Source: Synechococcaceae cyanobacterium
GTDB lineage: Bacteria; Cyanobacteriota; Cyanobacteriia; PCC-6307; Cyanobiaceae
Direction: 5' to 3'
DNA length: 35,589 bases
NCBI GenBank assembly: GCA_947378425.1
Contig: CANCJV010000042.1
Coordinates: 1 to 35,589, forward strand
The notes under the pieces were generated by a model. It saw only the letters and a program-made list of their open reading frames with translations. It was not told where the DNA came from and did not search any database. Positions 2,951 through 11,164 of the stretch are shown here, in pieces (position 1 is the stretch's first letter; each line of letters opens with the position of its first letter). The translations under genes and the position numbers were made by a program.

Positions 2951-3241
2951 GCGGGGGGCATTTCCGGATCCGAGCAGTGCTGCCCGCGATCGTCACGAGT
3001 TCCACAAGCGACGCCCGAACCGTGCTCAACCACCGGCGATGAAGGTGATTGATGGGGTTGGACCCTCGCGTTCAACGGCTGCGCAGAAGCCTTCGGCTAC
3101 GGATCCACCCAGCTCTGTCTGGATACGAGGGATCGGAACAGCATGACCGGGCTGCTGGCGGAACCGCTCAAAGCCCAGCTTCCAGTCAGCGTCTGAGGGG
3201 CTGCGGAACCCTGGAGCTCAGCGCCCTGAATCGACGGCACC

Positions 3242-3649
3242 TCAGCCGGAGGCGGCAGGGTGGATTGAGCTCTCGTGTTGCAAACGTGCCGCGGCGGATT
3301 CCCAATCCCAGAGATGGGCGGCGCGCATCAATTCTGGCGGCGAGGTTCTCCACCAGTGGCGTATCACCTGCTCCAGTTGCTCGCATTCGGCCAAGAGGGC
3401 AAAGGGCGCCTGCTGGCGCAGATCGCGCAGGCCGGCTTCGCTCGTTGTGCCGGTGGGGTGGTTCACAAAGGTGGCCTTGATCTGATTCCTCAGCGCTTCT
3501 GGGTTGTTGATGTTGGCCTCCAGTACGGAGCGGTAGACAAAGAAGCTGAGGGCCTCAAAGCCTTCCTCGGCTTGCTGCTGCTTGCGGGCTTCGTTTAGGG
3601 AGAGTTCGGCGAGCAGATTGTCGAGGGCATTAGGTGTTGGGGCTAGCGC
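3242..3649 (-). pseudogene. Decayed C-terminal piece of a type I restriction R subunit (HsdR-like)
   Basis: Reading the minus strand from 3649, the frame has no usable Met start and yields NALDNLLAELSLNEARK, then GFEALSFFVYRSVLEA, then NPEALRNQIKATF and GLRDLRQQAPFALLAE. This order of a helical Arg/Lys-rich segment, an F-Y/F-VY block and an LR-x-LR block near the end resembles the C-terminus of HsdR-type helicase-nucleases as I remember them. After LEQVIRHW the frame stops making sense, while a neighbouring frame (down to about 3186) gives LVENLAARIDARR, the expected ending. That indicates a frameshift. The helicase and nuclease parts are absent, since unrelated DNA begins upstream. The piece lies on the same strand as the hsdM remnant at about 9290-9640. 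Identification rests on remembered family features only. Confidence 0.5.
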
Positions 3650-3741
3650 TCAAGATCGGTGGCGGGCAGTAGTGGCTCTCCCCACTTAAAAGGTATTCGT
3701 GCTTCTGACTGTTGAATCTTGACGTTCAGCTGTAAACGAGA

Positions 3742-4629
3742 CTATTTGCTAAGGCTTGGTATCTTCTGCGCAATGTGATATGTTGATAGATATGAAAGGT
3801 GAATCTCCCCGCCCCCCTTCTCCAGGATGCATTGCCTAAGCCCAGCAAATAAGACATTCCTCGTGCCGCGATCAAGCTTTAGATATGATGAGTACGTGCC
3901 GAGCAGGGATATGTATTGATCAGATGTATAGGCCAAGGAGGTTTCCATGGTTTCTGTGACCAGGTTTCGAAACCTGCCAGAGTCAAGCATCATTTGACCA
4001 AGCCCAATCAGAATGGCTTCCTGTGTTTTCCTGTCTTCGTATCGGCCAAGAGAGGGGACATGTAGCTTGTATGCATCTGAAAGTGCGTGCTGCATTGACT
4101 TGCAGGGTTGCAGCTCTTTGTTCCACAAGAGTATTAAATGGCCGTCCTCCCTCAGTGCGCTACTGGCCTTGGCATAGCCAATCTCGGCAGGGATCCAATG
4201 CATGGAGCTTGCGGCGAGAACTGCATCAAATGCTTCAGGCTCTAGGTTCCATTCTTCGAAGGATTTGTTAATCACTTCTACTGTTGGATAAGATTTGCAA
4301 TTCATTCTTGCTAAGTTGCAAAAATCTGGATTGGGCTCAATGCAGACCATCCGGCATCCGAGTTCTGCAAAGGAGGTTGTGGCTGTTCCCGGGCCACTCC
4401 CAATTTCGAGAATTCTTGAGGATGAAGACAGCTCGGCTGCGTTGACCGCCTTTCCAATGAGTTCGCTGGGGTATTTCGGCCTTGTGGAGTTGTAGTCCTC
4501 TGCGGCGGGAGAGTACCAATTCTTTCTCTCTTCAAGATCTGTACTTGCGATACACTTAACTGCTTGCCTAAGCTCCTTGTAGTCCATCCTCTGTTTATGT
4601 TCGGTTTGGGAGCAAATTGATGCTTGCAT
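3742..4629 (-). CDS. Class I SAM-dependent methyltransferase (cassette gene)
   Basis: A 295-residue methyltransferase of the Methyltransf_11/25 type. The N-terminal YSPAAEDYNSTRPKYP segment is typical of small-molecule methyltransferases. Motif I is ILEIGSGPGTATTSFAELG, the acidic residue after strand 2 is in CIEPNP, and the motif IV/post-motif region is FDAVLAASSMHWI. The substrate cannot be read from the sequence. The ATG at 4629 was chosen over the TTG at 4638; ATG at 4587 (MDYKEL) is an alternative, because AGAGG directly precedes it. Base composition is clearly lower in GC than the flanking core genes. The start lies about 20 bp from the core of the attC site at 4648-4705, as expected for an integron cassette. 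No convincing attC follows its stop codon, so this seems to be the truncated last cassette. Confidence 0.85.
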   Translation of the reverse strand: MQASICSQTEHKQRMDYKELRQAVKCIASTDLEERKNWYSPAAEDYNSTRPKYPSELIGKAVNAAELSSSSRILEIGSGPGTATTSFAELGCRMVCIEPNPDFCNLARMNCKSYPTVEVINKSFEEWNLEPEAFDAVLAASSMHWIPAEIGYAKASSALREDGHLILLWNKELQPCKSMQHALSDAYKLHVPSLGRYEDRKTQEAILIGLGQMMLDSGRFRNLVTETMETSLAYTSDQYISLLGTYSSYLKLDRGTRNVLFAGLRQCILEKGGGEIHLSYLSTYHIAQKIPSLSK

Positions 4630-4647
4630 TTCTTCCAAGTTTAACCA

Positions 4648-4705
4648 GTCTAACGTCTGGCATCAGCGGCGAGCGTAGTGAGTCCGCTGCATGCCGGGGT
4701 TGGGC
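4648..4705 (-). repeat. attC recombination site 1 (between glycosyltransferase and methyltransferase cassettes)
   Basis: On the minus strand the site begins GCCCAAC (fits RYYYAAC) and ends GTTAGAC (fits GTTRRRY). Between these ends lie inverted arms CGGCATGCAGCGG and CCGCTGATGCCAG, which pair with small mismatches around a short loop. The 58-nt length is in the normal range for attC. It follows the glycosyltransferase stop codon (4736) by about 30 bp and precedes the methyltransferase start, so its orientation agrees with the genes. Confidence 0.85.
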
Positions 4706-4735
4706 TCGGGCGTGGTCGCCTTTCGGTCGCGGAAG

Positions 4736-6037
4736 CTACTGGGAGGAAGGATGGTCGAATGTCGCATCGAGACGGGACTCGATGAGAGTTACCGCTGCCT
4801 TTACTCCGTTCTCTCTCCCCATTGCTGCCCCGATTTTCGAGGCTCGGACCGCCATCTCCGGGCATGCGAGTACCTGTGCGATTGCGTTGGCCAGTTCCCT
4901 CGACGACAGACCCTTGCGTGTCTGCGTCTCTCCAGCAACCCGAAGTCGCTCCAACTCGGAGCCCCAGAAGAACTGGTCGGACATGTGTGCGACGACGAGG
5001 GACGGGCGGCCCGAGAGCAAGCTCGACTGGGTCGTTCCGGCTCCTCCGTGGTGAACAATGACGGAGCACCTCGGAAAGACCCGCCTGTACGGAGCCATCC
5101 TTACTTTGAAGACCGGCCCCTCGACCGGAATGTCTTTGAGATCTTCCCACGGGAGTTGGAACACCGCGCGACACCCGAGCCGCTTGACCGTTGACTCCCA
5201 GATTGCCGCCGCCTCCCGGATGTACTTCAGGTCGTGGAGCATCATGCTTCCGAATGTGAAGTAGACGGGCGGGGTACCCTGCGAAAGGAACTCGTCGAGC
5301 CCGTCGGGGAGATTCTCACCGGACAAGAGACCTGGAGGATTCAGAAAGCCACACACCCTGTTGTTCTCCCCCCAGTCTCCGGGCGCCCGACAGATCTCGG
5401 GGCTGACTGCCAGGAGGTTGAGCCGCTCGGAGGCCCATGTCTGCGTCATGACATCTGAGTTCGGTTCGAGACCCTCCCTCGTGCGTAGTGCATTCACCCT
5501 CGGGAGGAATATCCGGTTGATCATCGAGCGCACGAGCCGCCATCCCAACGGGTAGGACCATCGCCCGAGGTCCGGCAGACCGGGAGGGTGAATCTCGCGG
5601 GACGGGAGGCAGTTGTGGACGACGTTGACTGTTGCCATTGGGAGTCGCGCTTTTTCCGCTGCGATGCGCAATGGGAAAACGAAGAAGTGGCCCACGACGC
5701 AGTCGTTGGATGCGCAGAGGTCCTTCGCTGCCGAGAACATGGATTCCATGACGGGGTCGAAGCCGTACTTCATGACGAGTTCGGCTTGCCGGATCGGGTT
5801 GCCGACCTGGATGATCTGCCGCCAGACCTCGGCGACCCTCTCGGGAGAAGCCGACACCGGGCTTGGTAGAGCTTGGAGGCTATATCCGGATTCCCTGGCC
5901 AGGCCGCTGTAGTCCCGACCGACGTTGTCGGTGACAACCAACGTGACCTCGTGACCCGCACGAGTCAGCCCTGCGGCAAGAGCGGTGAAGGGTTGAACAT
6001 CTCCCTCGCTGCCCCAAGTCTGCAGACCGATCTTCAT
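4736..6037 (-). CDS. GT1 family (UGT/MGT-like) glycosyltransferase (cassette gene)
   Basis: A 433-residue cytoplasmic glycosyltransferase with the two-Rossmann GT-B fold. The N-terminus MKIGLQTWGSEGDVQPF is the acceptor-domain signature of the sterol/macrolide glycosyltransferase branch of GT1. The C-terminal donor-binding part contains VYFTFGSM and a PSPG-like motif, HHGGAGTTQSSLLSGRPS followed by VVAHMSDQFFWGSEL. Related enzymes move sugars from UDP or TDP donors onto lipids, sterols or polyketides; the acceptor here is unknown. The ATG at 6037 is the start of the conserved motif. The gene is flanked by attC sites at 6090-6174 and 4648-4705, making a cassette of about 1.45 kb, which is large for a cassette. 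GC content is high but codon choice differs from the neighbouring cassettes, suggesting a separate origin. Confidence 0.9.
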   Translation of the reverse strand: MKIGLQTWGSEGDVQPFTALAAGLTRAGHEVTLVVTDNVGRDYSGLARESGYSLQALPSPVSASPERVAEVWRQIIQVGNPIRQAELVMKYGFDPVMESMFSAAKDLCASNDCVVGHFFVFPLRIAAEKARLPMATVNVVHNCLPSREIHPPGLPDLGRWSYPLGWRLVRSMINRIFLPRVNALRTREGLEPNSDVMTQTWASERLNLLAVSPEICRAPGDWGENNRVCGFLNPPGLLSGENLPDGLDEFLSQGTPPVYFTFGSMMLHDLKYIREAAAIWESTVKRLGCRAVFQLPWEDLKDIPVEGPVFKVRMAPYRRVFPRCSVIVHHGGAGTTQSSLLSGRPSLVVAHMSDQFFWGSELERLRVAGETQTRKGLSSRELANAIAQVLACPEMAVRASKIGAAMGRENGVKAAVTLIESRLDATFDHPSSQ

Positions 6038-6089
6038 TTCAGCGCCTTTGGTCTGAAAGTGCAGGGTTACCGAGAACCAGGCCCTCGAA

Positions 6090-6174
6090 GCCTAACGTTC
6101 AAGATCAGAAGGGGGGAGTCACTTTGGCTAAGGGGACAGCCTTCGCCCCCGTCTTCTGAATCTAGATGTTAGGC
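6090..6174 (-). repeat. attC recombination site 2 (between brnTA and glycosyltransferase cassettes)
   Basis: On the minus strand it runs from GCCTAAC to GTTAGGC, both perfect matches to the R'' and R' consensus. The arms GATTCAGAAGACGGGGG and CCCCCCTTCTGATC pair with a few bulged bases, as attC folded on one strand requires. Total 85 nt. The brnA stop codon TAA lies inside the GCCTAAC box, a common arrangement in integron cassettes. Confidence 0.85.
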
Positions 6175-6480
6175 ACCCTTCGCATCGCCAGTGGAGTGAG
6201 CTTCGATATAGTCCTTCAGAACAGCATCCATGCGGGCTTGCCAACCAGCTCCAGAAGCCCTGAAATAGTCAATAACCTCAGGACTATACCGGATTGAAAC
6301 CAGCTGCTTTTTATTTGCCAACTTTGGGCGGCCGCGCAGCACCCGCATGGGGACCATCGCGCTCATCTGCTCGTCTGTAAGCGGAAGGGCATCAGGATCT
6401 GATTCCGCTGCCGATGTAATCAACCGATCTTCCTCAAGCGTCGGCATCTTCAGGTTGACCTTTCGTAATGGCTTTGACAT
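6169..6480 (-). CDS. brnA: BrnA family antitoxin
   Basis: A 103-residue antitoxin that would bind and neutralise BrnT and repress its own promoter. The C-terminal part contains KKQLVSIRYSPEVIDYFRA then GWQARMDAVLKDYI, the CopG/ribbon-helix-helix-like DNA-binding segment typical of BrnA. The N-terminal half is acidic and probably contacts the toxin. The ATG at 6480 gives the usual family length and overlaps the end of brnT by 47 bp. An upstream start at 6549 is open but would add 23 atypical residues. The stop codon lies inside attC site 2. A palindrome that could be its operator lies just upstream of brnT at 6740-6751. Confidence 0.85.
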   Translation of the reverse strand: MSKPLRKVNLKMPTLEEDRLITSAAESDPDALPLTDEQMSAMVPMRVLRGRPKLANKKQLVSIRYSPEVIDYFRASGAGWQARMDAVLKDYIEAHSTGDAKGA

Positions 6481-6733
6481 AGTGATTGGCTTCACGGCGA
6501 TTGGCTCTGCGTAGGCTAATAAATCGCCTTGCTGGCTCGCGATCAACAAAGTCTACAAAAAAGAGTATGTCTTCAATTGGAGCCAAGGCAACCATCCTTG
6601 CTTCACCATAGTCAGCCCGATCATCAATCCAGACGAGTGCTGCATCCCAGCTAAGGTCAGCTGCGGCCGCCAAGGAGAGGCCGTGCTTGCTCAGATTGGT
6701 CGCGTCCTTGCCAGGGTCGAAATCGAACTCCAA
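6434..6733 (-). CDS. brnT: BrnT family ribonuclease toxin
   Basis: A 99-residue toxin of the BrnT family, which adopts a RelE-like fold and cleaves RNA. It begins with the family hallmark EFDFDPGKDATNLSKHGLS and continues with VDREPARRFISLRRANRREA, containing the ISxRxAxxxE signature of BrnT. The start is a TTG at 6733, because a TAA stop lies two codons upstream in frame and the family motif begins at the second residue. It is the first gene of a two-gene operon with brnA and overlaps it. A promoter with an overlapping palindrome lies immediately upstream. All expected motifs are present and no frame break is seen, so the toxin is probably intact. Confidence 0.88.
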   Translation of the reverse strand: MEFDFDPGKDATNLSKHGLSLAAAADLSWDAALVWIDDRADYGEARMVALAPIEDILFFVDFVDREPARRFISLRRANRREANHYVKAITKGQPEDADA

Positions 6734-6738
6734 ACTTT

Positions 6739-6767
6739 ACCGTAGCTACGGAAAGGCGGCCCGTCAA
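6739..6767 (-). promoter_or_regulatory. Predicted brnTA promoter with palindromic operator
   Basis: On the minus strand TTGACG (6767-6762) is followed after exactly 17 bp by TACGGT (6744-6739), a plausible -35/-10 pair with a strong -35. The perfect 12-bp palindrome CCGTAGCTACGG (6740-6751) overlaps the -10 box and ends 6 bp before the brnT start codon. BrnA proteins are known to autorepress, so this is a natural operator candidate. The -10 box is weak; the assignment is an inference. Confidence 0.5.
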
Positions 6768-6796
6768 CTTCGCCACAACAGGCGGCCTTTGGTTGG

Positions 6797-6892
6797 CCCT
6801 AACGCTGTCCCTGAGTGGCAGGCAAGGACTCTAGAGCGCGAGCCGGGAATCGGTGGTGGCCTGTCCACTCAAGGGGCTTGTATCCGTTCATC
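6797..6892 (-). repeat. attC-like site 3, divergent ends (between hicAB and brnTA cassettes)
   Basis: The arms CCCTTGAGTGGACAGGC and GCCTGCCACTCAGGG pair almost completely on the minus strand, with single bulges, and enclose a central loop. The right-hand core is GTTAGGG (one base off GTTRRRY). The left-hand box GATGAAC fits RYYYAAC poorly. The site begins at the hicB stop codon and ends about 64 bp before brnT, exactly where a cassette boundary is expected. Confidence 0.6.
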
Positions 6893-7224
6893 TATGCCGT
6901 GACACTTCCCTGGAGTGCTTCCTGAGCGAGCGTGTTGAGACTCTTTCCCTGAGCCTCGGCAGTCATCGCTAATTTCTCGTGTAGTTCAGGCGGAATCCGA
7001 AGATTGAATTTGCCTGAAAAGTGTCTGCGGGGCTCGATCCCTTGCTCCTTGCAGACGTCAAGAAAGACTTCCAATGACTTTTTGAACTCACGGCGAAGCT
7101 CATCTGGACTGGATCCATAGAAGTCCGCTCCTCCAGAAAGCCCAAGAATTTCCCCACGAAATTGATCTGTTTCCTCGTCGTACTCAATTTTGGCTTGGTA
7201 GCCATCCACTTTCATCAGATTCAT
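6892..7224 (-). CDS. hicB: HicB family antitoxin
   Basis: A 110-residue HicB antitoxin. The N-terminal half (YQAKIEYDEETDQFRGEILGL) is the degenerate RNase H-like fold of HicB. The C-terminal part (FNLRIPPELHEKLAMTAEAQGKS then LNTLAQEAL) is a ribbon-helix-helix DNA-binding domain, which normally allows autoregulation. It starts with ATG at 7224, overlapping the hicA stop by 4 bp (ATGA), so the two are translationally coupled. ATG at 7215 is a possible second start. The TAG stop abuts attC-like site 3. Confidence 0.9.
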   Translation of the reverse strand: MNLMKVDGYQAKIEYDEETDQFRGEILGLSGGADFYGSSPDELRREFKKSLEVFLDVCKEQGIEPRRHFSGKFNLRIPPELHEKLAMTAEAQGKSLNTLAQEALQGSVTA

Positions 7225-7475
7225 GGTGTCACTCCGTGTTCTTCAAACCACTTGCGGATTGAAGCAACAGCACCCTTGTCTGTATCGGGCGAGGGATGGG
7301 GTCTGTGGAAGACCCTGACTTCGCCAAACAGAACGACCGCGACTCGGCTGCCCGCCCTTTCACTGACATCCCCACCAAGCTCCTGAAACAGGGCTTCGAT
7401 GTCCCTCCACGGCAAGCTGCCGCTTATGGGACGGGAGAAGATCAGCTCAAGAGTGCGCTGGTGCTTCCGCTTCAT
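7221..7475 (-). CDS. hicA: HicA family mRNA interferase toxin
   Basis: An 84-residue toxin with the double-stranded-RNA-binding-like fold of HicA, which cleaves mRNA. The segment PWRDIEALFQELGG is the first helix, GSRVAVVLFGEVRVFHRPHP is the beta-hairpin that carries the catalytic His, and GAVASIRKWFEEHG is the closing helix. It begins with ATG at 7475 and overlaps hicB by 4 bp. The order toxin then antitoxin is usual for hicAB. Length and motifs are complete. Confidence 0.88.
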   Translation of the reverse strand: MKRKHQRTLELIFSRPISGSLPWRDIEALFQELGGDVSERAGSRVAVVLFGEVRVFHRPHPSPDTDKGAVASIRKWFEEHGVTP

Positions 7476-7536
7476 CCCAGGATAGTACTGCCTCTCGGTA
7501 CCAGATGCGGCTTCCGGTCAATGGCTTGCTGGATAC

Positions 7537-7625
7537 GGATAACGCTTGCCATCACCTGGCCGCAAGGATTCCTTGCGACGAAAAGAGTCATTTGGTGGCG
7601 GCCCAGACGTATGGCATTGTTAGAC
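7537..7625 (-). repeat. attC-like site 4 (between relE/higB-like and hicAB cassettes)
   Basis: On the minus strand it begins GTCTAAC (perfect R'') and ends GTTATCC (core GTT kept, remainder off consensus). The arms CAATGCCATACGTCTGGGCCGCC and, on the other side, a sequence whose complement reads TAACGCTTGCCATCACCTGG then CCGC align over most of their length with bulges. It is 89 nt long. The stop codon of the antitoxin gene (TAA at 7622-7620) is inside GTCTAAC. Confidence 0.7.
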
Positions 7626-7934
7626 AGCCGTCTCCGCCTCAACAGCAGGACTTGCATGCAGTTGAAGTCCGAGTGCAGAGATAACCTTCAAGACGGTTGC
7701 CAGCTCAGGATTACCGCTTGCTGAGAGACCCTTATAGAGACTTTCCCGACCCAGTCCAGCTTCACGTGCAATCTGCGTCATGCCCTTGGCACGCGCGATA
7801 TCGCCCAATGCAGCAGCCACTAGCGTTGGATCTCCATCCTCCAGAGCGGCTTCAAGATAGGCTGCCATGTCTTCACTGCTTGTGAAATGATTGGCTGGAT
7901 CCCAGGCAGTTGTTTCGGTTTTGGTCATTGACAT
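7620..7934 (-). CDS. Addiction-module antidote protein (XRE/HigA-like)
   Basis: A 104-residue antitoxin of the 'putative addiction module antidote' family. It contains the family lead-in NHFTSSEDMAAYLEAALEDGDPT, then a helix-turn-helix (MTQIAREAGLGRESLYKGLS) and the closing NPELATVLKVISALGLQL. It would neutralise the RelE/HigB-like toxin encoded 3 bp upstream and repress the shared promoter. The start is the ATG at 7934, with another ATG two codons later. The gene is intact, although its toxin partner contains a nonsense codon. Its stop codon lies inside attC-like site 4. Confidence 0.88.
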   Translation of the reverse strand: MSMTKTETTAWDPANHFTSSEDMAAYLEAALEDGDPTLVAAALGDIARAKGMTQIAREAGLGRESLYKGLSASGNPELATVLKVISALGLQLHASPAVEAETAV

Positions 7935-7937
7935 TCC

Positions 7938-8225
7938 CTAAAGGTTACGGGCTAGATCCTTGGCATACTGGATGTCTTGCACCTGAGAGCCCTTGTCGCC
8001 ACTAGCCAGGAGAACAATAAGCATGTTGCCTTGGTTTTTGAAATAGATCCGGTAGCCAGGGCCATATCGAATTCGAAGCTCAGAGATACCTTCTCCGACT
8101 GGCCGGACATCACCTGGATTCCCCAAGGATAATCGCCTGATCCGAATGTCGATGCGAGCTTTTGCCGCTCGACCATTCAGGGCACTGAATCATGCGGCAT
8201 AGGCAGGGGTCTCCCGAATCTCCAA
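7938..8225 (-). pseudogene. RelE/HigB-like toxin gene with in-frame TGA at codon 12
   Basis: From a TTG at 8225 the frame reads LEIRETPAYAA, then a TGA stop at 8192-8190, then FSALNGRAAKARI and RIRRLSLGNPGDVRPVGEG, ending YRIYFKNQGNMLIVLLASGD and AKDLARNL. That is the complete family pattern of the RelE/phage Gp49-like toxins that pair with this type of antidote. Family members usually carry Trp at the stopped position (AAWF), so one G-to-A change from TGG to TGA explains the stop. An internal restart (for example TTG at 8126) would yield only the C-terminal two thirds. The toxin is therefore probably inactive; a sequencing error or readthrough cannot be excluded. Confidence 0.8.
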
Positions 8226-8234
8226 CCTGCCACC

Positions 8235-8263
8235 ATTGTATCTCCAGGGATACGGTGAGGCAA
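8235..8263 (-). promoter_or_regulatory. Predicted promoter of the relE/higB-like toxin-antitoxin cassette
   Basis: On the minus strand TTGCCT (8263-8258) and TACAAT (8240-8235) are separated by exactly 17 bp. TACAAT differs from the -10 consensus at one base. The imperfect inverted repeat GTATC-N6-GATAC (8238-8253) overlaps the -10 region and may be the antitoxin operator. Transcription would begin only a few bases before the TTG start, so the transcript would be almost leaderless. Confidence 0.5.
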
Positions 8264-8277
8264 GCGGTCTTCGGCCT

Positions 8278-8370
8278 GTCTAACGGTCGCGCTCACCGGA
8301 CGTAGATTACCTTTATCTTTACCACTAAACCAAACATATTGGTAGTTCCGGTGCAGCGCGGTTGTTAGGC
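8278..8370 (-). repeat. attC recombination site 5 (downstream of the split cassette gene)
   Basis: On the minus strand it runs from GCCTAAC to GTTAGAC, both perfect consensus ends. The arms CGCGCTGCACCGG and CCGGTGAGCGCG pair well, with bulges, around an AT-rich central stretch. Length 93 nt. It directly follows the stop codon of the gene at 8372. Confidence 0.87.
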
Positions 8371-8371
8371 G

Positions 8372-9286
8372 TCAATCCGGCTTCCAGGGAACGCCCAGCC
8401 GGCTCGCAGCTACTCGAGAGCCAAGATTGGAGAGCGTGGTGTTGCGCGCTACGAGTTTGAGGCGCACATCATCCCAGTCGAGGAAAATCGGGATAATTTT
8501 CTCTCGTTCCTCACCGTGAACACACATCACAGAAAGGCCCAGGGTATCTCCATCGTTAACCGAGGCGTAGGAGTTCATCAGGCCTTCAAACACTCTCCGT
8601 GCCTCGGGTGCGGTTGTATTGATGATTTCCCTTGCCTTGCCGTGAATGTCGCCCAGCCCTTCAAGATACTCACGGCAGGCCTGAAGCAACTCGACGCTTG
8701 AGGGCATTTCGTCAAGTATCTTCCTATGGAACTTCTTGTTTTCCTCAAGAAGGTCTTTGTTCGAAAAAAGACTGAGGCGAGTTTCGTTGATGACTTCAGA
8801 CTCCTTGCCGGACCATTGCGAGTTATGACTTACTACGTGCACAGCCAATCCAGAGTGCTGTACGTGGTTGCGGAGTGCTTCCATGAAGCGGTAAGAAAAT
8901 CTAGAATCATATTGATTTGCAGTTGCATTCCTGAACGCGATTACAGCGTCATCTGGAGTAGTAGAGTGCTCTGAGAGGTGCTGCGGGGCGTGGTCTAAGT
9001 ACAGTCGTGCTGCTGTCAGTAAGTTCACGATTCTGCGGTTCGCGCGGGTACGTTCTTCGGAAAACTCCTCATAGGTGCGACGGTCCTGAACAACATATCT
9101 GGCTGCAGCACACAAGGCCTCCTAGTCAAGCTCTAGAAAATTAGACACTAGAAGGTCGTACGTTTCTTCGAGAGCAAAAGCCGCATTAAGAACGGTGCGC
9201 GCTCGGCGAGCTTCTGCAACATGCTCCTCTGTGATTGGGACCTCGGGCACCCGATTAATTACAGCAAGTTGCAGGATGTAGCTCAT
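8372..9286 (-). pseudogene. Uncharacterised cassette gene split by an in-frame TAG (54 + 247 codons)
   Basis: The frame begins with ATG at 9286, three bases after a GTTAGGC core, and encodes MSYILQLAVINRVPEVPITE, ending in YDLLVSNFLELD at a TAG (9124-9122). The same frame continues for 250 codons, containing RRIVNLLTAARLYLDHAP, YRFMEALRNHVQHSGLAVHV and FLDWDDVRLKLVARN. Together they would form one protein of about 304 residues, soluble and helical, with no signal peptide or membrane helix. I do not recognise a named family; the NRRIVNLLTAARLYLD segment looks like a conserved core. TAGGAGGCC-TTG places a Shine-Dalgarno-like AGGAGG just before a TTG (9115), so translational restart to a 247-residue protein is possible. 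Alternatives are a simple nonsense mutation or two coupled genes. Confidence 0.65.
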
Positions 9287-9289
9287 GAT

Positions 9290-9296
9290 GCCTAAC
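9290..9296 (-). repeat. Lone integron core site (GTTAGGC) at the upstream edge of the cassette array
   Basis: The minus strand reads GTTAGGC-ATC-ATG, so a perfect GTTRRRY core directly precedes the first cassette gene. No matching RYYYAAC box or inverted arms are found to the right. It could be the insertion point of the array in a secondary site, a degraded attC, or a leftover attI. No integrase gene is seen next to it. Confidence 0.55.
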
Positions 9297-9639
9297 TCTT
9301 GATTGGGCGGTTCGGTGAACCACCATCACCCGGCCGTTCCTTGCCGCGAACCATAGCGAAAAGAGTTGGCGAGGTGGTCCGAAGGCATGGTGCTGCATGG
9401 GATTTGCTTCTTGTCCACCAATCTCTGGCCTTGGTTCTCGGGTCTGATAAGCAACTGTTCACGATGAACCTGGTCGTGGGCGTGGTCAAAGTGAAAATCA
9501 ACGGCAGGATCTAGTTCTTGTCTATCGGCCCATCCTTGGCGCCGCGAATCGAGCAGGTTGTATCCCTGATCCAGGATTGCAGCGATATGTCTTTGGGTTC
9601 CGCCTTGGTGGTCTTGCCGCCGCGTTCCCGGCTGCGCAT
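9292..9639 (-). pseudogene. Decayed N-terminal fragment of a type I restriction methylase (HsdM)
   Basis: From ATG at 9639 the minus strand reads MRSRERGGKTTKAEPKDI, then SLQSWIRDTTCSIRGAKD, GPIDKN, a TAG stop (9513-9511), and ILPLIFT. This matches the HsdM N-terminus I know from cyanobacteria, in which a W-I-x-D-x-x-CSIRGAKD segment is followed by a short Lys-rich stretch, an aromatic residue and ILPLIFTKRL. The TAG replaces that aromatic residue. Beyond ILPLIFT the frame no longer resembles HsdM, and it ends inside the GTTAGGC core at 9290-9296. The methyltransferase catalytic domain is missing. The gene is dead. It lies on the same strand as the HsdR-like remnant at 3242-3649. Confidence 0.6.
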
Positions 9640-9660
9640 CACGATCCTGCGGGCCACCAG

Positions 9661-9789
9661 CTACACCTTCACCTCTTCGTCGATCGCTTCGTCCCAGCCC
9701 AGTGCCTGCCCCAGAACCGGCTTCTTCACGGGGCTGCCGGTCTGGTCCAGGGCTTCAAGGTCGTCGTCTGGCAGCTCCTGATCGGCCAT
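9661..9789 (-). CDS. Small acidic ORF upstream of the hsdM remnant
   Basis: A 42-codon frame encoding MADQELPDDDLEALDQTGSP followed by VKKPVLGQALGWDEAIDEEV and ending at TAG. It is in the same frame as the hsdM remnant and separated from it by 21 bases. It could be a small gene of the old restriction locus, or the original start of a longer HsdM that has been cut by a nonsense codon. It is acidic and has no recognised domain. Whether it is expressed is unknown. Confidence 0.3.
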   Translation of the reverse strand: MADQELPDDDLEALDQTGSPVKKPVLGQALGWDEAIDEEVKV

Positions 9790-9856
9790 CGTTGCGCTGG
9801 GGCGGGCATCCCGCGCCAGGCACCAGCACCCAAGGGACTGCTGGTGGCACTTCTCT

Positions 9857-10441
9857 GTGGGGCCTCCCCGCCTGGAGTCCCGCGCGTCACCGTCACCCGC
9901 TGATTCTGTGGCCCCTGCCAGCCTCGCCGACGACCCGCCACCCGGCGCCGGTCAGGAGCCTGCGATTCCGCCAGAATCGTCCCCAACAGCAAGCTCCTGG
10001 TCAGGCCTGGATCGCCTCGGTTACACCCAGGCCATCGGCGGCCTGGCCCTCGGCCTGATCGCCCTGTTCTCCTCCTATGACCACATCACCGTCGCCGGCC
10101 GCACCCTCCAGCTCCAGCAGCAATGGGGCGTCGCCTTCATCGTTGCCTCGGTGGCGATCATTCTTGTCGATGCTCAACTGGCGACGCGATCCCGACTACG
10201 AGTGGCGCATGAACGTGCTCGAGATCAATATTCAGCGAACCGAGAGCGATATCGAGCAAGTCGAGAGAGAAACCGAGCAGCTCAAGCAAGAGAACGCCAG
10301 AGAGAGAGCTTTGAGCGCCTCGATCAGGCGGCTTTGCTTTCCGCCCGAATCCAGCTCGATCCCTCAGACAGCAACCGAGCCCGACTGCGGGCCTTCCTCA
10401 CCCTGATGGGCCAGCGACAGCTGGACGACCGGGACCTTTGA
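9857..10441 (+). CDS. Hypothetical two-helix membrane protein with charged coiled coil
   Basis: Up to 194 residues. After a Pro/Ser/Ala-rich N-terminal tail come two hydrophobic helices (about residues 54-73, YTQAIGGLALGLIALFSSY, and 90-107, WGVAFIVASVAIILVDAQ). Then comes a long Arg/Glu/Ala-rich segment that should form a coiled coil (residues about 110-155), and a conserved-looking end, LLSARIQLDPSDSNRARLRA. The topology suggests a hairpin in the membrane with a cytoplasmic coiled coil. No function is known. The start may be GTG at 9857 or GTG at 9908; neither has a clear Shine-Dalgarno site. A second plus-strand frame (10077-10406) also reads as coiled coil here, but lacks the membrane helices and the ending. 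This gene marks the return to core-like composition after the island. Confidence 0.65.
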   Translation: MGPPRLESRASPSPADSVAPASLADDPPPGAGQEPAIPPESSPTASSWSGLDRLGYTQAIGGLALGLIALFSSYDHITVAGRTLQLQQQWGVAFIVASVAIILVDAQLATRSRLRVAHERARDQYSANRERYRASRERNRAAQARERQRESFERLDQAALLSARIQLDPSDSNRARLRAFLTLMGQRQLDDRDL

Positions 10442-10471
10442 AGCCGGCCAGGTTGCCGTGGGGCCGATTGC

Positions 10472-10699
10472 TTGATTGCCGGTCATCGATCAGAACGATC
10501 CAACCAGAAACAAGTGGTGCGGATAGTTCAGGAGCTCGGCTGCCGGGCTAGGCGTGAGTCCGGCCATCTGGTCATGGCCAGTGGTCTGTGCCGTCTGGCG
10601 ATCCCCCGTCAGCTGACCTCCAGTCCGCGAGCATCGATCCGCTGCTGCTGCCCTGCAATCCTGCAATCGCTCCAGGCAGACAGAAGCCCCAGACCATGA
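10472..10699 (+). CDS. Small ORF with weak resemblance to HicA, possibly a remnant
   Basis: A 75-codon frame starting at TTG. The segment KQVVRIVQELGCRARRESG followed by HLVMASGLCRLAIPRQ has the helix, G-x-H hairpin and terminal strand order of HicA-like proteins. The remaining 30 residues (Ser/Pro/Arg-rich) look non-coding. It may be a truncated relic or simply a chance frame. A hairpin at 10686-10710 overlaps its end. Confidence 0.25.
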   Translation: MIAGHRSERSNQKQVVRIVQELGCRARRESGHLVMASGLCRLAIPRQLTSSPRASIRCCCPAILQSLQADRSPRP

Positions 10700-10710
10700 A
10701 GATCTGGGGC
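10686..10710. terminator. Hairpin between converging genes
   Basis: GCCCCAGA (10686-10693) and TCTGGGGC (10703-10710) form a perfect 8-bp stem with a 9-nt loop. There is no T-run on either side. Its place between the converging genes at 10441/10699 and 10793 suggests a bidirectional transcription stop. Confidence 0.4.
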
Positions 10711-10792
10711 CGCTGGGGTTCTGTGGCCGAATACGGGCTGCAGCCGTCTGGATCAGGCCATAAGCCGATCAGACCGGTCGCCTGGCCTCAGC

Positions 10793-11164
10793 TCAGACGA
10801 AGGCGTACTCGTACTCCTCCATTTCTTCCCAGTCGTCGGCGGCCATCGATTCGAGGCCCTCGAACAGGACGTCCTCACCGATGCGATCGACGATCAGCCG
10901 CAGGGAGGGGAACAGGAAGTGATTTTCCTCGGCGTACTGGGCACTGAACAGACCCTTTTCACCCCAGAAGAAGCGGTCGGTGGTGTGCTCGTTGCGGCGG
11001 ACGTTCAGGATCGCCGGAGCCATCAGTTCGGACTCGGCGATGTAGCGCCGGGCTGCTGTCACAGGTTTGTGGACACCGGTTTCGAGATTGAAGGTGGGCA
11101 CATGGGCGAGAACCCTTTGGCCGGCCAGACGACGGCGGCTGATCCGCTTGCGCTTCTTGGACAT
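10793..11164 (-). CDS. DUF3155 domain protein
   Basis: A 123-residue basic-to-acidic protein of the cyanobacterial DUF3155 family. The basic N-terminus MSKKRKRISRRRLAGQRVL is followed by PVTAARRYI, the conserved VRRNEHTTDRFFWGEKGLF and QYAEENHFLFPSLR blocks, and an acidic C-terminal tail (DDWEEMEEYEYAFV). Function is unknown; the Arg/Lys-rich start suggests nucleic-acid or ribosome contact, which is inference. The ATG at 11164 is preceded by GGGAG and gives the usual family length, although the frame stays open upstream to 11545. A divergent histidine kinase gene starts 448 bp away. Confidence 0.88.
   Translation of the reverse strand: MSKKRKRISRRRLAGQRVLAHVPTFNLETGVHKPVTAARRYIAESELMAPAILNVRRNEHTTDRFFWGEKGLFSAQYAEENHFLFPSLRLIVDRIGEDVLFEGLESMAADDWEEMEEYEYAFV

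What the first reader, a model, noticed from the sequence alone, without database searches (positions are those of the whole stretch)
8372..9286. One cassette gene split by an in-frame TAG that forms a Shine-Dalgarno-like site
A 54-codon and a 247-codon segment are in the same frame, separated by a single TAG, and together look like one protein of about 304 residues. The TAG belongs to TAGGAGG, with a TTG start four bases after AGGAGG, so stop-and-restart translation may generate two polypeptides from one gene. The protein family is unknown to me, which makes this the best candidate for a novel function in the array.
Basis: partly seen in the sequence, partly recalled or inferred. Interest (0 to 1): 0.6.

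Follow-up and report, generated by a model that had tools for sequence, protein, structure and literature searches.

The report
Stop-broken RNase-like gene in integron cassette
A cyanobacterial integron cassette carries one copy of a widespread, unnamed, probably RNA-cutting protein family, and this copy is interrupted by a single premature stop codon, so it looks like a switched-off gene rather than a clever two-protein gene.

Summary
The frame is real: minus strand 9286-8372, 304 residues, one in-frame TAG (9122-9124) after 54 codons, AGGAGG overlapping the stop. The spacer to TTG 9115 is 2 nt, not 4. The gene is an integron cassette with an attC at 8278-8370.

Relatives occur in 60 genome-collection loci, in viral contigs, in Marinobacter phage PS3 and in B. 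subtilis plasmids. Of 69 aligned relatives, the 65 that reach the TAG column all have a sense residue there. The predicted structure (pLDDT 94.8) puts the TAG inside one long helix, with strongly conserved residues on both sides.

The family (phrog_30874, function unknown) is most likely a HEPN-type ribonuclease: R-N-x-x-Q-H at the end of helix 3, an acidic residue in helix 2, a helix inserted between them. Profile searches do not show this, and fold comparison is suggestive only. The window copy groups with proteobacterial cassettes.

Next door, a RelE/ParE-type toxin gene also has one in-frame stop while its antitoxin is intact. Assembly error cannot be excluded without reads.

The parts
8372..9286 (-). 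cassette gene, phrog_30874 family (HEPN-like), 304 codons interrupted once
   Evidence: homologues; alignment
9122..9124 (-). in-frame TAG, codon 55
   Evidence: sense residue in all 65 of 69 rows that reach the column
9118..9123 (-). AGGAGG overlapping the TAG; spacer to TTG 9115 is 2 nt
9113..9115 (-). TTG proposed as restart codon (codon 58); not supported as a conserved start
8855..8872 (-). codons of RNHVQH (residues 139-144), the R-x4-H motif
8278..8370 (-). attC site that ends the cassette (93 nt); palindromic, strand given after the gene
   Evidence: DNA fold z -5.20, 0 of 200 shuffles as stable
9290..9296 (-). GTTAGGC core at the 5' boundary of the cassette, 3 nt before the ATG; the attC-like palindrome upstream of it is degenerate
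   Evidence: DNA fold z -1.35; not found by the attC scan
7938..8222 (-). RelE/ParE HI1419-type toxin gene of the next cassette, interrupted by one in-frame TGA (8190-8192)
   Evidence: TIGR02683, 109.8 bits, cutoff 62.85, model 2-94 of 95
7620..7934 (-). its antitoxin, HI1420 type, intact
   Evidence: TIGR02684, 125.5 bits, cutoff 53.7
7221..7475 (-). HicA toxin, open frame
6892..7224 (-). HicB antitoxin, open frame
6434..6733 (-). BrnT toxin, open frame
6169..6549 (-). BrnA antitoxin (this ORF start may be too far upstream)
6090..6174 (-). attC site
4648..4705 (-). attC site

Best explanation
The feature is an integron gene cassette that encodes one member of the phrog_30874 family and is interrupted by a single nonsense codon, so this copy is most likely non-functional. 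Intact members are about 300-residue, four-helix HEPN-type proteins with a beta insert after the R-x4-H motif. They most likely act as metal-independent ribonucleases in phage defence or growth arrest, travelling alone, at times as integron cassettes or as prophage cargo. Shown: one frame, conserved on both sides of the TAG; a sense residue in all relatives that reach the column; an attC; a place in a clade with proteobacterial cassettes. Inferred: HEPN ribonuclease activity (motif, topology, partial fold match), a role in defence (contexts only), and loss of function of this copy, since a 54-residue peptide ends inside helix 1 and any restart product lacks the conserved E40, E41, N49 and the acidic position 54.
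For: In 65 of 69 homologue loci no stop lies inside the tblastn match; the other four (L037, L053, L066, L090) have it at residues 287-303, read as their natural ends. All 65 rows reaching codon 55, of 69, have a sense residue. Conserved residues stand on both sides of the TAG (window row included): E40 in 65 of 65 rows without a gap, N49 in 61 of 65, E54 in 64 of 66 (the window has D54); N88, L90 and D98 in 68 of 70 each, R139, Q143, H144 in 70 of 70. Model of the read-through protein: pLDDT 94.8, pTM 0.90; helix 20-66 contains codon 55; RNHVQH ends helix 130-144; strands 151-176 follow; helix 200-241 comes next. HEPN features as described in PMC3710099 (passages read): Rx4-6H at the end of helix 3, N/D/H after the R, acidic residue in helix 2, insert between helices 2 and 3. 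A pBS32-type relative has the same topology, and its VIA list is headed by HEPN toxin 7ae6_B, Z 8.9, rmsd 3.9, 129 aligned. attC 8278-8370 has fold z -5.20. The window protein lies in a 6-row clade, support 99/94, with Rhodoferax, Azonexus, Chitinibacter, Roseateles and a gammaproteobacterial MAG; three of those five (L030, L058, L062) have attC-type sequence next to the gene.
Against: No HEPN profile reaches significance for this protein, and hhalign against two HEPN families was not significant, though the control between those two families also failed. The VIA list of the window model shows no HEPN row in its top 50. In one search HEPN rows tie with designed bundles and FAT domains, and that model has pLDDT 67 only. 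The invariance of the motif is partly built in, because the scan selected on it. Most homologues show no integron evidence. Ribonuclease activity and defence were not tested. The TAG may be a sequence error, so loss of function is not certain.
Confidence: 0.72

Rival explanations
1. The TAG is an assembly or sequencing error and the gene is intact.
For: Only one assembly is held; the genome is in 84 contigs. The neighbouring toxin gene also has a lone stop, and the integron integrase of the same genome lies across a contig break and changes frame near its end.
Against: Of 10 chromosomal genes of the same contig examined, 9 match Pfam models in uninterrupted ORFs; the tenth had no match at the limit of 1e-10. 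The lesions that I found lie in integron genes, which fits decay better than random error; other genes of the genome were not checked.
Confidence: 0.15
2. Stop-and-restart: TAG ends a 54-residue peptide and ribosomes restart at TTG 9115, giving two working polypeptides.
For: AGGAGG with -10.2 kcal/mol anti-SD energy upstream of TTG, the best of the in-frame start-type codons listed.
Against: Spacer of 2 nt; no conserved start or SD there in 63 homologues; no homologue split at that place among 69 rows; the break falls inside one helix.
Confidence: 0.05
3. The stop is read through at low level, so that a costly RNase is made only rarely; together with the TGA in the neighbouring toxin it would be a selected brake.
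For: Two adjacent (putative) toxin genes each carry exactly one stop, TAG and TGA, with the rest of both frames open.
Against: No relative of the studied gene has a stop at that site; no read-through motif was tested; simple loss of toxin genes explains the same pattern.
Confidence: 0.05
4. Not a HEPN enzyme but another helical protein whose R-N-x-x-Q-H has a structural or binding role.
For: No significant profile match to a HEPN family; fold matches are shared with unrelated bundles.
Against: [quoted passage not shown]
Confidence: 0.2

Closest known systems
phrog_30874 (PHROGs v4, function unknown)
   Same: 60 of 63 members of alignment A4 match it, best E 2.9e-194; the window protein at 4.4e-8
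   Different: No function is given; the window copy is interrupted by a stop
HEPN superfamily (PMC3710099, passages read)
   Same: R-x4-H with N after R at the end of helix 3, acidic residue in helix 2, four-helix order with an insert before helix 3
   Different: No significant match to a HEPN model of Pfam; two beta strands between helix 3 and helix 4 and about 60 further C-terminal residues. The passages read mention a beta-hairpin right after the motif for the Csx1 family
Integron cassette HEPN Vpc_cass2, PDB 3JRT (PMC3548836 and PMC3710099, passages read)
   Same: Lone gene in an integron cassette, four-helix bundle related to the KNTase_C clan
   Different: No sequence similarity found: the family profile hits only 9ges_A among PDB chains at E <= 10; 3JRT has its extra helices after helix 3
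HEPN/MNT toxin, PDB 7AE6, 7AE8, 8YUF
   Same: 7ae6_B heads the VIA list for the pBS32-type relative (Z 8.9, rmsd 3.9, 129 aligned)
   Different: Titles of 7AE2 and 7AE9 name an MNT antitoxin partner; here no gene recurs in more than 4 of 67 homologue loci

Membership tests
phrog_30874 | match to the family profile | tested here: met
   window protein E 4.4e-8, residues 81-157; 60 of 63 members of A4 match
HEPN superfamily | Rx4-6H motif with a polar residue after R | tested here: met
   R139-N-H-V-Q-H144; R and H in 70 of 70 rows, N140 in 69. The scan selected on the motif, but R139 and H144 are also invariant in the 14 rows of A2, of which L004 and L018-L022 were found without it
[quoted passage not shown] acidic residue in helix 2 | tested here: met
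   helix 130-144 then loop; D98 (68 of 70 rows) in helix 72-107; criteria from PMC3710099
HEPN superfamily | sequence-profile similarity to a known HEPN family | tested here: inconclusive
   Pfam scan of 63 members: one member with a weak LA2681 hit, E 0.013 (first 25 of 50 families shown); hhalign not significant, positive control also failed
HEPN superfamily | fold match to a solved HEPN structure | tested here: inconclusive
   7ae6_B Z 8.9, rmsd 3.9, 129 aligned, tied with designed bundles, model pLDDT 67; none in the top 50 for the window model
HEPN superfamily | ribonuclease activity | not testable with these tools
   needs an assay
Integron gene cassette | attC site directly 3' of the gene and recombination core directly 5' of it | tested here: met
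   attC 8278-8370; GTTAGGC core 3 nt before ATG; the palindrome upstream is weak and not found by scan
Integron gene cassette | integron integrase beside the array | tested here: not met
   integrase-like matches of the genome lie on C19 and C37, not on this contig C42: a cluster of attC sites without integrase
Vpc_cass2 (3JRT) family | sequence similarity to 3JRT | tested here: not met
   profile A4 against the PDB chain sequences, E <= 10: only 9ges_A

The most novel reading that the evidence does not exclude
phrog_30874 is a new family of lone HEPN ribonucleases with a beta insert behind the active site, used in phage defence and carried both as integron cassettes and as cargo between prophage head genes across at least eleven bacterial phyla. 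The cyanobacterial array stores toxin cassettes that have been silenced by single stops (this gene and the RelE/ParE-type toxin beside it) while the antitoxin is kept.
Probability: 0.35. Interest if true: 0.55.

Novelty: new member of a known kind. Interest (0 to 1): 0.33.

Why it matters
The translational trick proposed for this gene can be dropped. What remains is an unannotated, widespread protein family with a recognisable active-site motif, which turns a PHROG of unknown function into a testable prediction (HEPN ribonuclease). The pair of stop-interrupted toxin genes beside an intact antitoxin is a small case of how toxin cassettes may be disarmed in an integron array of a cyanobacterium.

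Tried and rejected
Pfam, NCBIfam, PADLOC: no match for the window protein that counts (NCBIfam's best was E 0.065). PDB by sequence: nothing relevant. Foldseek against PDB (both models) and BFVD (window model): no match at E <= 0.001; VIA for the window model lists no HEPN row among the 50 shown. hhalign against MAE_28990 and LA2681 HEPN families: not significant, and those two families do not find each other either. A conserved partner gene: among 598 neighbouring ORFs (60 aa or more) of 67 loci the widest cluster spans 4 loci and lies 1.4 kb or more away; a DUF6279 gene is adjacent in 3 loci (L033, L044, L065; two of them Nitrosomonas) and an S49 peptidase gene in 2 (L008, L091). attC near homologues: a strict scan found 1 of 64 downstream (shuffles 0.00) and 1 of 62 upstream (0.10); a looser one 6 of 62 upstream (shuffles 0.50) but only 2 of 64 downstream (0.80), so most homologues show no integron evidence; the looser scan also missed an upstream attC in the window. 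The first genome-contig scan with the single protein found no relative. Rfam at gathering thresholds: nothing in the window. The general repeat search of 3000-10900 gave nothing used here.

Rows dropped: L011 (same as L008) and L009 (same as L076) before all counts on homologues; L010 and L079, identical proteins, were both kept. For A4, L063, L065, L077, L086, L091, L073, L031 and L039 were left out as partial; for the tree, L063, L065, L077, L086, L091 and L073. L065 is counted among the 65 rows with a residue at codon 55, but its 5' part comes from a contig end and may not be homologous there.

Full report
What is there. The window is contig 42 of a 3.63 Mb genome in 84 contigs. On the minus strand 9286-8372 there is one frame of 305 codons with TAG at codon 55 (9122-9124) and a terminal TGA. 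The TAG overlaps AGGAGG (9118-9123); TTG 9115 follows after 2 nt, not 4 as the finding says. The anti-SD energy upstream of that TTG is -10.2 kcal/mol, the best of the in-frame start-type codons listed in that call (codon 1 itself: -2.6). AGGAGG occurs somewhere in 571 of 2000 synonymous-codon shuffles of this gene.

Where it sits. Directly 3' of the gene is an attC site, 8278-8370, with DNA fold z -5.20 and 0 of 200 shuffles as stable. Directly 5', 3 nt before the ATG, is a GTTAGGC core (9290-9296); the palindrome upstream of it is degenerate, z -1.35, and a scan did not report it. Two more attC sites lie at 6090-6174 and 4648-4705. attC sites are palindromic and matched on both strands; I give them the strand of the genes. 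The genes between are on the same strand: RelE/ParE HI1419-type toxin and HI1420-type antitoxin, HicAB, BrnTA, a glycosyltransferase and a methyltransferase. No integrase match lies on this contig. The integrase of the same genome is cut by the assembly: its N-terminal part ends contig C37 and its C-terminal part ends contig C19. C19 also carries attC-like sites; by eye some resemble those of the window. So the array is a cluster of attC sites lacking an integrase, a term used in PMC12444791 (passages read). GC is 0.516 in the gene, 0.544 in 3700-9300, and 0.674 in the rest of the window.

Relatives. The protein matches no Pfam, NCBIfam or PADLOC family significantly but matches phrog_30874, unknown function, E 4.7e-8. 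Relatives were found in Marinobacter phage PS3, between the portal and scaffold genes; in 36 B. subtilis plasmid records, as partial matches; in 2 of 149 nearer genomes and 6 of 386 genomes of the phylum, the window's own genome included in both counts; in 12 and 9 viral contigs, six of them shared; and in 60 loci of the genome collection. Identities to the window protein in A4 are 21-46% (62 rows). The tree lists hosts of eleven phyla, many of them MAGs.

Is the stop part of the family? No. In 65 of 69 loci no stop lies inside the tblastn match; the other four (L037, L053, L066, L090) have one at residues 287-303, which I read as their natural ends. In an alignment of 69 homologue rows, 65 reach codon 55 and all 65 have a sense residue there, in a variable, mostly polar column. 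The other four do not reach it: L091 starts at a contig edge, L063 is cut near one, L077 has a replaced 5' end and L086 a frameshift. Conserved residues stand before the stop (window row included: E40 in 65 of 65 rows without a gap, N49 in 61 of 65, E54 in 64 of 66) and after it (N88 68 of 70; R139, Q143, H144 70 of 70). Strong anti-SD matches occur at the place in 14 of 63 homologues and a start-type codon at 58 in 13 of 63, so a restart site is not a family trait.

Structure. With TAG read as Q and 63 sequences, the model has mean pLDDT 94.8 and pTM 0.90. Helix 20-66 contains codon 55, so the stop cuts the first core helix. The order is helix 20-66, helix 72-107, helix 111-128, helix 130-144 (ending in RNHVQH), strands 151-159 and 166-176, helix 200-241, then a C-terminal part. 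[quoted passage not shown] The model and alignment agree with these (D98 in helix 2, 68 of 70 rows). The passages mention a beta-hairpin right after the motif for the Csx1 family.

How strong is HEPN? By sequence profile it is unproven: 1 of 63 members has a weak LA2681 HEPN hit, E 0.013, and hhalign against two HEPN families fails, but so does the positive control. By fold it is suggestive: for the pBS32-type relative (pLDDT 67, same topology) the VIA list begins with HEPN toxin 7ae6_B (Z 8.9, rmsd 3.9, 129 aligned) and includes 8yuf_B, 7ae2_A, 7ae9_D, 7ae8_B and 1jog_A (Z 8.1-8.6), yet designed bundles and FAT domains score the same. For the window model itself no HEPN row is among the 50 shown. 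I put the HEPN assignment at about 0.8 on motif plus topology. PMC3710099 already lists an integron cassette HEPN family (3JRT; described as Vpc_cass2 in PMC3548836, passages read); the present family shows no sequence similarity to it.

Mobility and context. In the tree the window protein falls, with support 99/94 (the bootstrap had not fully settled), into a clade with Rhodoferax, Azonexus, Chitinibacter, Roseateles and a gammaproteobacterial MAG; that the four named genera are betaproteobacteria is recalled. L030, L058 and L062 of these have attC-type sequence at the gene, as does L087 (Limnobacter) elsewhere in the tree. L034 and L038 have an integrase gene similar to the window genome's integron integrase within 4 kb (45-63% identity to its C-terminal piece); L038 has it divergently upstream and a TIR-domain gene downstream. 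Other neighbours of loci that I picked include an OLD-like ATPase (L059), a GmrSD-type gene (L055) and an S49 peptidase (L008) (10 neighbours examined). No gene recurs in more than 4 of 67 loci. A mostly lone, mobile gene in such company fits a defence or growth-arrest ribonuclease; this step is inference.

Why broken? In the next cassette the RelE/ParE-type toxin also has one in-frame TGA (8190-8192) in an otherwise complete match to TIGR02683 (109.8 bits), while its antitoxin is intact. HicA and BrnT are open. Of 10 chromosomal genes of the contig that I checked, 9 matched Pfam models in uninterrupted ORFs. Loss of costly toxin genes is the simplest reading; error in the assembly remains possible and only reads can settle it. 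Five paper searches showed me no description of this family; apart from the passages cited I saw listings only.

Noticed in passing
window 7938-8222 (-): RelE/ParE HI1419-type toxin gene with a single in-frame TGA (8190-8192) beside an intact HI1420-type antitoxin.
   Followed up: partly
own genome C19 end (L027) and C37 end (L028): The integron integrase lies across a contig break, and its C-terminal part changes frame shortly before the end; C19 carries attC-like sites, some resembling those of the window.
   Followed up: partly
window 6174-8278: Three toxin-antitoxin pairs in a row (HI1419/HI1420, HicAB, BrnTA) with no attC detected between them, so either one large cassette or eroded attC sites.
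   Followed up: no
L086 and L077: Other damaged members of the family: a frameshift in L086 and a replaced 5' end in L077.
   Followed up: partly
L038, L040, L047: Very similar family members in MAGs labelled Planctomycetota and Gammaproteobacteria: recent transfer or binning error.
   Followed up: no
L004 4953-5846; L008 and L091: In phage PS3 the gene sits between portal and scaffold genes, and in L008 and L091 some 65 nt before an S49-peptidase-type gene: a possible repeated cargo spot in head modules.
   Followed up: no
L033, L044, L065: A DUF6279-type gene lies within about 100 nt of the homologue in three loci, two of them Nitrosomonas.
   Followed up: no
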